Positions 1 to 60,508 of a stretch of DNA of 64,000 nucleotides are shown piece by piece. How positions within the stretch are numbered: the stretch's first letter is position 1; every line of letters begins with the position of its first letter. This DNA comes from Clostridia bacterium. Lineage in GTDB: Bacteria; Bacillota; Peptococcia; DRI-13; UBA5745. A program made the translations under genes and the position numbers. The stretch covers positions 1 to 64,000 of the forward strand of contig JAHDMJ010000023.1 in the NCBI GenBank assembly GCA_018436095.1, in the 5' to 3' direction. Under the pieces are notes generated by a model that was given only the letters and a program-made list of their open reading frames with translations, was not told where the DNA came from and made no database searches.

Positions 1-30
1 CTCGGTTTGTAGCGTCGTTTGGCAGTGACT

Positions 31-338
31 GTGCAAAATTGCAAGTTTGTTTACATAGTTATGGCCTTTTGTGCAAAATTGCAGCTTTGTAGTATGTGAT
101 TTGGCCTAAAAATAGGTTTTCACCCCATTTTCGGATCAAATTTGTTCCAAAAGGAAGATTTACGGGTTACAAACCTGCATTTTTGCTCAGTTAGCCTATG
201 CGAATGATAACAAACCTGCATTTTTGCTCAGTTAGCCCAAGCGAACGACGACAAACCTGCAATTTTGAGCAGTTAGCGCTGCAAAACAGTTTTAAAACGG
301 TCAAAGTCAGCGCACAACCTCGTTTTTTGAGCAGCCGG
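31..338. repeat. Intergenic inverted-unit repeat element, locus 1
   Basis: No gene is seen in 1-404. The stretch holds two forward units (31-50 and 71-90, TGTGCAAAATTGCAAGTTTG type), a 78-bp middle, then three inverted units at 169-196, 210-237 and 251-277, spaced exactly 41 bp and each ending CAGTTAGC. A degenerate fourth inverted unit lies at 313-338. The inverted units are complementary to the forward ones, so the stretch could fold into a long interrupted hairpin. The first ten bases match the start of a longer repeat at 59916-59925, so this element probably continues off the left edge. A 9-bp imperfect hairpin at 372-396 lies just past the mgtA stop but lacks a T run. Confidence 0.8.
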
Positions 339-25911: not shown

Positions 25912-26151
25912 TGAGCAAAATTGCAAGTTTGTCATCCTATTGGCCCCCAAATGTGCAAAATTGCAAGTTTGTACCATGCAAACAGTGTTTTTGGCCCATT
26001 TTTCTTCTGAAAGTGACTAAGAAATGGGTTTTCATGCAACAAACACATCTTAACCTGCATATCCCGAATAAAAATACGGCAGTCGTCCCTACAAAGCTGC
26101 AATTTTGCACAGTTAGCTACATCAAACAGCAACAAAGCTGCAATTTTGCAC
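25912..26151. repeat. Intergenic inverted-unit repeat element, locus 2
   Basis: Between divergent genes (rfbF-like and a chemoreceptor). Forward units lie at 25912-25932 and 25952-25972 (TGTGCAAAATTGCAAGTTTG type, 40 bp apart). Inverted units lie at 26091-26116 and 26132-26151 (ACAAAGCTGCAATTTTGCAC, 41 bp apart), the first followed by AGTTAGC. The middle contains its own hairpin (CCCATTT near 25995 with AAATGGG near 26030). The four units pair two-by-two, giving a symmetrical long hairpin. No reading frame here has a plausible start. Confidence 0.85.
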
Positions 26152-26200
26152 AAAAATGCCGCTAGGGAGAACCTGCCCCATTGGAGGATCACTACCGTCC

Positions 26201-28402: not shown

Positions 28403-28612
28403 TGCTCAATTTTTTCGCTTGTATGTGGTTCAAGGCTTCTTCCTGTTCAATTTTTTCGTTTGTAGGTGAATTGCAGAGGCCATTAAGTGAAATTCTGGCC
28501 GGTTTTGTTCAATTTTTACGGTTGTCCGTAAATATTCGGTTGCATTTCACATACAAACGTAATTTTTGCTCAGCTAACCTGGGGCAATCGATCACAATCG
28601 CAATTTTTGCAC
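28403..28612. repeat. Intergenic inverted-unit repeat element, locus 3
   Basis: Between the chemoreceptor and the DUF1538 gene. Forward units start at 28403, 28444 and 28506 (TGTTCAATTTTTTCGTTTGT type, first two 41 bp apart). Inverted units start at 28552 (ACAAACGTAATTTTTGCTCA, then GCTAACC) and 28593 (CACAATCGCAATTTTTGCAC), 41 bp apart. The unit core differs from loci 1 and 2, but the forward and inverted copies here match each other (TTTTTCGTTTGT against ACAAACG-AATTTTT). Confidence 0.75.
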
Positions 28613-48023: not shown

Positions 48024-48041
48024 CATAAAGCAAGTCAATAT

Positions 48042-48128
48042 CTGCTCCCTACGTTGGCATTACCCACATCAGGTTTAAGGGTCGAAGCTTTTCGCTTCCT
48101 CTCAGCCCGTCTCACGAGCTCCCCTGAT
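48042..48128 (-). promoter_or_regulatory. TPP riboswitch (THI element)
   Basis: On the minus strand the conserved CTGAGA, ACCC, ACCTGA, GGGTAATGCCAACGTAGGGA signatures appear in the right order and spacing, bracketed by an outer stem. It is followed by a terminator 20 nt further on, then by cytX. Thiamine pyrophosphate binding is expected to favour the terminator and switch off the cytX-thiM-thiE-thiD operon. Confidence 0.97.
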
Positions 48129-48202
48129 TCTTTTTTACGCCCTTAACCGCTATCGTTTCGGTTGCGGCGCTTCGTTATTATACTGCAATTCTTTTCCCTT
48201 TG

Positions 48203-59663: not shown

Positions 59664-60508
59664 TTGCTCAAAATTGCAGGTTTGCAGAAGGAATGAAAAA
59701 TTTGCCTTAGTCTCAGCCGGGTGTACAAAATTTGAAGTATTATGTGGTTTGCTTTGTTGAAATAGGTATTTCAATCCTACTCATACACTAAATGCAGGTA
59801 AAGGACGGTGCGCAGGGCGGCAAAAATTGAAATTCCGAGCAGTTAGCTGAGGCAAATACACATAATACCTGGTTTTTTGTACAACGGCTGGATGGGAAGC
59901 GACTTTTTCAGTGCCCTCGGTTTGTTGAAGGTACTGCAAAAGCCGGACAAGCTGACCTTCGTGGGGCTGAAATCGGATTCACTGTTGCCAACTGCACAAA
60001 AATCGAAGTTGTGTGACGGCAAGCAGGGGGTTTTCCCTGTTTTCGGTTCCAGATGCACAAAAATTGAGGTTGTGTGACGATTATAGGGCAGTTCTTAGTA
60101 ATCTGAGCCCATTTGAAGGACATGGTGCAGCACAACTTCGCTTCTTGTGCAGTTAGCCTCTGCTTTTAGCCTAAATTTGATGTCCGCTGCAACACAACTT
60201 CGATTTTTGAGCACCCCGCCCGATTTGCCGGTCAAGTTTTCTCAGTGCTCTTGGTTTGTTGAAGGCACTGAAAAACCGGGCAAGCTAACCTTCGTGGAGC
60301 TAAAATGTACAAAATTTGAGGTTTTATGTTTATTTGCCATGGCTAGCTGTACAAAATCTTCAGTTTTATGTTGGTAAGCACTGTTTTCTCTGTATTTAGT
60401 GTCAACGATAATTTGAATCCACTATCTTAAAGGAGGCACCCACCCAAAACCTCAAATTTTGTACAGGCGGCTGGATGGGAAGCGACTTTTTCAGTGTCCT
60501 CGGTTTGT
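59664..60508. repeat. Composite intergenic inverted-unit repeat element, locus 4
   Basis: This fills most of the 1.1-kb gap between pilM and pilD; I see no gene in it. Forward units lie near 59664, 59722, 59993, 60054, 60306 and 60348. Inverted units lie near 59821, 59857, 60131, 60192 and 60442. They form three sub-elements with different unit cores (TGTACA-TATTATGTG, TGCACA-GTTGTGTG, TGTACA-GAGGTTTTATG), each matching its own inverted partners. Longer direct repeats are a 41-bp segment at 59885-59925 and 60468-60508 (one mismatch) and a diverged 64-bp segment at 59909-59973 and 60243-60306. Confidence 0.85.

What the first reader, a model, noticed from the sequence alone, without database searches (positions are those of the whole stretch)
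25912..26151. Undescribed family of symmetrical inverted-unit elements in intergenic DNA (best-formed copy)
Seen: two forward ~21-nt units 40 bp apart, a central hairpin, then two inverted units 41 bp apart, so the units pair two-by-two. Similar elements occur at 31-338, 28403-28612 and 59664-60508. The unit edge is constant (GCTAACTG before forward units, CAGTTAGC after inverted ones), but the core varies by locus while forward and inverted copies agree within a locus: GCAAGTTTG/CAAACCTGC at loci 1-2, TCGTTTGT/ACAAACG at 3, GAAGTTGTGTG/CACAACTTC and GAGGTTTT/AAAACCTC at 4. That covariation is what selection on pairing, or local gene conversion, would give. Inference: structured RNAs, REP/BIME-like sequences, or protein-binding arrays phased about four helical turns apart.
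Basis: partly seen in the sequence, partly recalled or inferred. Interest (0 to 1): 0.82.

Follow-up and report, generated by a model that had tools for sequence, protein, structure and literature searches.

The report
Helically phased nested mini-transposons in Clostridia
The repeated units are the end-marks of a large family of tiny gene-less jumping DNA elements that fill the gaps between genes in this bacterium, keep their marks on one face of the DNA helix, and often jump into one another at a fixed distance from those marks.

Summary
The focus (25912-26152) holds two forward and two inverted 21-nt units, spaced 40 and 41 bp, around a hairpin. The unit is a major dispersed repeat of the host, a Clostridia genome: 213 exact 17-mer hits genome-wide, 0 in the reversed control, about 275 units in an 848-kb sample. 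One sister species carries it; 3 sparser same-genus genomes show none.

It is not RNA selected for pairing. All spacings are quantised at about 10.4 bp in both species, and forward/inverted agreement exists only between subfamilies, not within one.

The elements are short, gene-less and MITE-like. Many carry an outer inverted repeat, GAGGNCACTGAAAAAGT, with 9-bp target duplications. Intact IS1182-family insertion sequences in related genomes have the same ends and 8-9-bp duplications. These elements often insert exactly 19 bp from the CAAAA of another element's unit, duplicating its variable core. In the sister species the ends are about 95% identical while interiors are about 58%, and the outer repeats are often missing, so something preserves the units.

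The focus copy belongs to a subfamily without the outer repeat; no target duplication was found for it, and no mobilising enzyme was found in its genome. What binds the units is inferred, not shown.

The parts
25912..26152 (.). Focus element (A-type): F F - hairpin - R R, bounded by TG...CA, in the gap between divergent genes (glucose-1-phosphate cytidylyltransferase on -, methyl-accepting chemotaxis protein on +)
25912..25932 (+). forward unit 1 TGAGCAAAATTGCAAGTTTGT
25952..25972 (+). forward unit 2 TGTGCAAAATTGCAAGTTTGT
25995..26029 (.). central hairpin CCCATTTTTCTT...AAGAAATGGG
26091..26111 (-). inverted unit 1 TGTGCAAAATTGCAGCTTTGT (on -)
26132..26152 (-). inverted unit 2, identical to inverted unit 1
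30..273 (.). A-type element F F R R R; alignments with other loci start exactly at its first TG (pos. 30); flanked at 1-3 by CTC, read as the end of an outer TIR cut by the contig edge
313..333 (-). solitary unit with a B-type core (GAGGTTGTGC)
28404..28612 (.). D-type element (core TTCGYTTGTAT); copies in own and sister genome, homology ending at 28612
59665..59918 (.). composite of an A-type unit and a C-type element ending in the TIR ...TTTTTCAGTGCCCTC
59993..60213 (.). B-type element (unit TGCACAAAAATCGAAGTTGTG) F F R R
60261..60501 (.). complete C-type mini-transposon with the outer TIR at both ends; 90% identical to C4:126911-127151 with unrelated flanks

Best explanation
The loci are copies of a superfamily of short, gene-less mobile elements (MITE-like). 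Each has one or more copies of a ~21-bp unit (TGNNCAAAAWTGCARGTTTGT and core variants) pointing inward from both ends around a 50-130-bp centre. SHOWN: the family is dispersed and intergenic; homology often ends exactly at the outermost units; spacings follow the DNA helix; one branch carries an IS1182-like terminal repeat with 9-bp target duplications and inserts 19 bp from units of other copies. INFERRED: the units are binding sites for a protein (transposase or host factor) that must sit on one face of the helix to bring the two ends together over a DNA too short to bend freely. Ends are conserved and spacings phased because only such copies are functional. Subfamily cores would reflect different binding specificities. 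Arrays grow by tandem duplication and by elements landing in units of earlier elements.
For: 213 exact unit hits in the genome, reversed control 0. Subfamilies A, B and C converge on one profile. Dispersed copies are 75-94% identical. Alignment ends pile up at the unit boundary (right offset 0 in 22 of 119). Forward-inverted spacing: period 10.44 bp, R 0.80, n 53, versus at most 0.45 in uniform nulls; sister species 10.34, R 0.88, n 56; same phase in both at 10.5 bp. TIR GAGGNCACTGAAAAA: 26 elements, 5.42/9 flank matches versus 2.57 +/- 0.31, with a peak only at length 9. 96 of 109 TIR ends have a forward unit within 100 bp, 0 an opposite one. 18 of 25 unit matches in TIR-end flanks lie exactly 19 bp from the TIR. 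A complete IS1182-family IS in G012 has the same TIR and a perfect 9-bp duplication GGATGAACC. G048 copies have the TIR and duplications of 9 bp (CCAAATCTG) and 8 bp (CTTTTAGA). Sister-species ends are 95% identical, interiors 58%.
Against: The focus and other A- and D-type elements have no outer TIR and no detectable target duplication. No relative of the matching IS1182 transposase exists in the own or sister genome, and no transposase found in either carries unit-bearing ends. Not every transposase family was searched. That so few decayed copies are seen, and that units outlive the outer TIR (33 of 56 sister elements have none), is more than plain MITE decay predicts.
Confidence: 0.7

Rival explanations
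1. Host-maintained nucleoprotein sites: the elements spread once as mini-transposons, but the units are now kept copy by copy because a host DNA-binding protein uses them (local regulation, DNA looping or chromosome organisation).
For: In the sister species ends are 95% identical against 58% for interiors; on a 391-kb contig all six detectable elements have near-intact ends and no decayed copy is found by interior similarity; outer TIRs are lost while units persist; spacing is helically phased.
Against: No binding protein is identified; sites are mobile, nested and patchy between species of one genus; positions show no regulatory rule (19 tandem, 13 convergent, 7 divergent gaps). Continued transposition with fast loss of dead copies gives similar patterns.
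Confidence: 0.2
2. Structured RNA: the units pair two by two in a transcript and the variable core is kept complementary by selection.
For: The focus folds with z -3.6 as RNA, as any inverted repeat would; cores agree between arms across subfamilies.
Against: Within subfamily A no variable position agrees between arms more than shuffled; even the focus has two mispaired positions per stem (AAGTTTGT versus AGCTTTGT); arm spacing follows the B-DNA repeat, which RNA pairing does not require; no Rfam match.
Confidence: 0.04
3. REP/BIME sequences mobilised by a RAYT (Y1/HUH) transposase.
For: Intergenic, high-copy, mosaic, inverted arrangements; no target duplication for A-type elements.
Against: Units are about 21 bp, not hairpin-forming REPs with a GTAG-like tetranucleotide; the GAGG branch has 9-bp duplications and terminal repeats of a DDE-type IS. 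A RAYT gene was not searched for.
Confidence: 0.04

Closest known systems
IS1182-family insertion sequences (NF033551) and MITEs derived from such ISs
   Same: TIR GAGGCCACTGAAAAAGT and 8-9-bp duplications shared with complete IS1182 copies in G012 and G048
   Different: The ISs carry no units at their ends; the mini-elements have phased units, and many lack the TIR altogether; another IS1182 member (ISPse1, PMC3281130) makes a 4-bp duplication
Prokaryotic MITEs in general (review PMC10969869)
   Same: Under 500 bp, inverted ends, intergenic, no gene, target duplication in younger copies
   Different: Several subfamilies with different cores share one architecture, spacings are quantised by the helix, and copies target each other's units at a fixed distance
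BrickBuilt MITE with minisatellite (Porphyromonas gingivalis, PMC4596501)
   Same: MITE with an internal direct-repeat array, always intergenic
   Different: BrickBuilt repeats are 23 nt without spacers; here 21-bp units sit on 40-41-bp periods and are inverted between the two arms
Multi-site transposon ends (Tn7 TnsB sites, Mu, IS21; from general knowledge)
   Same: Several ~20-bp direct units at each end, inverted between ends, TG...CA outermost
   Different: No rve-type transposase with units found in the genome; whole elements are only ~100-390 bp
REP/BIME
   Same: Intergenic interspersed mosaics of inverted units
   Different: Unit size and structure, 9-bp duplications, IS1182-type ends

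Membership tests
MITE | short (<500 bp), no coding capacity, many copies | tested here: met
   Complete TIR-bounded elements 190-319 bp; no gene between forward and inverted arrays in the 848-kb sample
MITE | terminal inverted repeats | tested here: met
   GAGGNCACTGAAAAA branch; for A- and D-types the units themselves bound the homology
MITE | target site duplication | tested here: inconclusive
   Met for the GAGG branch (9 bp); not found for A/D types, including the focus
MITE mobilised by IS1182-family transposase | ends and duplication identical to an autonomous IS | tested here: met
   G012 and G048 IS1182 copies: same TIR, 8-9-bp duplication; applies to the GAGG branch only
MITE mobilised by IS1182-family transposase | autonomous partner in the same genome | tested here: not met
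   No relative of that transposase in G000 or G004
MITE mobilised by IS1182-family transposase | transposase acts on the element | not testable with these tools
   Needs a biochemical or in vivo assay
Structured RNA | compensatory changes between paired arms | tested here: not met
   No excess agreement within subfamily A
Structured RNA | transcription of the element | not testable with these tools
   No RNA-seq available
REP/BIME | associated RAYT (Y1) transposase | not tested
   Searches went to PF00872, PF01609, PF06782, PF00665 and an IS1182 protein only
Tn7/Mu/IS21-like ends | rve-family transposase bounded by the units | tested here: not met
   Only an IS3-like gene in G000 and a fragment in G004, no units near either

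The most novel reading that the evidence does not exclude
The units are sites of an unidentified DNA-binding protein that builds a helically phased nucleoprotein complex on hundreds of dispersed mini-elements; several subfamilies with different core specificities coexist, mobile elements use these sites as landing pads at a fixed 19-bp distance, and the sites are preserved copy by copy after the transposon ends have decayed.
Probability: 0.3. Interest if true: 0.75.

Novelty: new variant of a known kind. Interest (0 to 1): 0.55.

Why it matters
It offers a natural readout of helical-phase constraint on mini-transposon ends across more than a hundred measured spacings in two species, a case of gene-less elements targeting each other's binding sites at one-base precision, and a test case for when a mobile repeat becomes a conserved protein-binding site. 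The repeats also break the assembly (several contigs start or end in them) and sit in promoter-length gaps.

Tried and rejected
TG...CA ends: no duplication for A-type elements at any tested offset. A 3-4-bp duplication for sister elements looked significant, but both flanks are A- or T-runs that recur as shared flanking modules, so I do not claim it. IS256 (C17:100-1170) and an IS1182/IS4-like fragment (C4:168970) in the own genome, ISLre2 in the sister genome and an IS3-like gene have no unit-bearing ends. Viral contigs: no match to the tandem unit pair. The genome-collection scan returned only the sister MAG, Clostridia bacterium SM1-B15.1; records close to the window's own may be left out of it. 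GCAGTGAC in A-type flanks is mildly enriched, but no consistent outer repeat was found. Literature searches found no description of this family.

Full report
OBSERVATION. The focus element is as described: units at 25912-25932 and 25952-25972 (forward), 26091-26111 and 26132-26152 (inverted), and a hairpin near 25995-26029. The three other loci are also real. The 17-mer CAAAATTGCARSTTTGT occurs 213 times in the 3.7-Mb host genome and never in the reversed-pattern control. In an 848-kb sample a profile finds about 275 units (0-11 in reversed controls, depending on threshold). Seeds from cores A (GCARGTTTGT), B (GAAGTTGTGTG) and C (GARGTWTTATG) converge on one profile. A D type (TTCGYTTGTAT) occurs at 28404-28612.

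DISTRIBUTION. None of 39 relatives has the exact A unit. A looser pattern finds the family in one sister species, G004, where TGNNCAAAAWTGCARNTT hits 130 times against 0 in three other, less complete same-genus genomes. The public-collection scan places G004 as Clostridia bacterium SM1-B15.1. G004 mostly has simple forward-inverted elements with ends TGNGCAAAATTGCARGTTTAAAGTGT.

HELICAL PHASING. In the host, forward-inverted distances are 77, 96-100, 108-109, 117-119, 127-129, 138-142, 150, 159 and 171-172 bp, with three outliers at 35 and 46 bp: best period 10.44 bp, resultant 0.80 (n 53), versus at most 0.45 in 300 uniform controls scanned over the same periods. G004 gives 10.34 bp, 0.88 (n 56), with the same phase at 10.5 bp. 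Same-arm spacings are mainly 40-42 and 61-62 bp. D-type total lengths are 212, 222-223 and 243-244 bp. Complete TIR-bounded elements are 190-192, 195-196, 200-202, 233, 241-244, 309 and 319 bp.

NOT RNA COVARIATION. Forward and inverted cores agree within elements more than between them (0.728 versus 0.567 +/- 0.019), but so do units of the same arm (0.72). Within subfamily A no variable position shows excess agreement. The agreement is subfamily identity, not compensatory change.

TRANSPOSON ANATOMY. The sequence GAGGNCACTGAAAAA(GT) flanks many elements. Of 109 distinct TIR ends with at most 1 mismatch, 96 have a forward unit within 100 bp and none an opposite one, mostly at 15 or 35-37 bp (some loci were fetched by unit, others by TIR). 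For 26 elements with both ends, flanks match at 5.42 of 9 positions versus 2.57 +/- 0.31 shuffled, with a peak at length 9 only. Perfect cases include C17:34851-35094 (CGATGAACC), C18:106950-107140 (CTTAGGCGG) and L228 (TGTAAAATC). In the window, 60261-60501 is 90% identical to C4:126911-127151, and the alignment ends at the TIRs.

AUTONOMOUS KIND. In G012 (same order) a complete 1730-bp IS1182-family IS (NF033551, E 6e-97) has TIR GRGGCCACTGAAAAAGT and a perfect 9-bp duplication GGATGAACC. G048 has copies 72-73% identical to it with GAGGCCACTGAAAAAGT, one with a 9-bp and one with an 8-bp duplication. Host and sister have no detectable relative of this transposase. The GAGG branch is therefore filed by ends and duplication, not by a resident partner.

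SELF-TARGETING. Scanning outside TIR ends for the conserved part of the unit, 18 of 25 matches lie with the C of CAAAA exactly 19 bp from the TIR, and no other distance exceeds 2. The 9 duplicated bases are thus the variable core of the target unit. This explains flanks such as ACAAACC|GAGGGC and the composite at 59665-60508.

CONSERVED ENDS. In G004, unforced end positions are 95% identical between copies and interiors 58% (shuffled interiors 44%). On a 391-kb contig all detected elements have near-intact ends, and no decayed copy shows up by interior similarity. Outer TIRs are absent on both sides in 33 of 56 and present on both in 7. Something preserves the units beyond the outer ends: continued mobility by another route, or use by the host.

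THE FOCUS ITSELF. It is an A-type element without the outer TIR. Copies of A-type elements end at the outermost TG...CA (right offset 0 in 22 of 119 alignments), but no target duplication was found. It lies between divergent genes, so effects on transcription are possible, but promoter matches there lie outside the element. Calling it mobile rests on its family, not on its own flanks.

CONCLUSION. A large, nested, helically phased family of gene-less mini-elements, partly IS1182-compatible. The binding protein and the mobiliser of the A and D types are unknown. Known kind (MITE-like), new variant.

Noticed in passing
window 48029-48135 (-): TPP riboswitch (RF00059, 64.8 bits).
   Followed up: no
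G000 C17:1-1340 (L326) and C2:1-160 (L010): An IS256-family IS sits inside an A-type array; the remaining 85 bp (C17:1333-1417) are identical to window 188-272.
   Followed up: partly
window 1-141 and G000 C1:56360-56500 (L008): The first 141 bases of the window are identical to the end of contig C1, so C1 and C12 are either adjacent or share a collapsed repeat.
   Followed up: no
L071 (G004 C33) 1497-1800: The sister species shows its own array growth: five units of 41-bp period with linker GGCTCGYTGC instead of GGCTAACTG.
   Followed up: partly
G004 elements, e.g. L136, L169: Element centres carry a conserved CACTARATAYAGCYAAATRCAG and ~10-bp-spaced GGCTGTATTT repeats, possibly an intrinsic bend.
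   Followed up: no
L172, L149, L190, L183 flanks: A second kind of flanking module (GCATCCGGTTAACGTCTGCAAACCTTGGAAAA on one side, a different ~60-bp module on the other) recurs around units without the GAGG repeat.
   Followed up: partly
L342/L370 (G012 C115): The complete IS1182 copy lies beside genes that look like conjugative-element membrane proteins (by eye, not searched).
   Followed up: no
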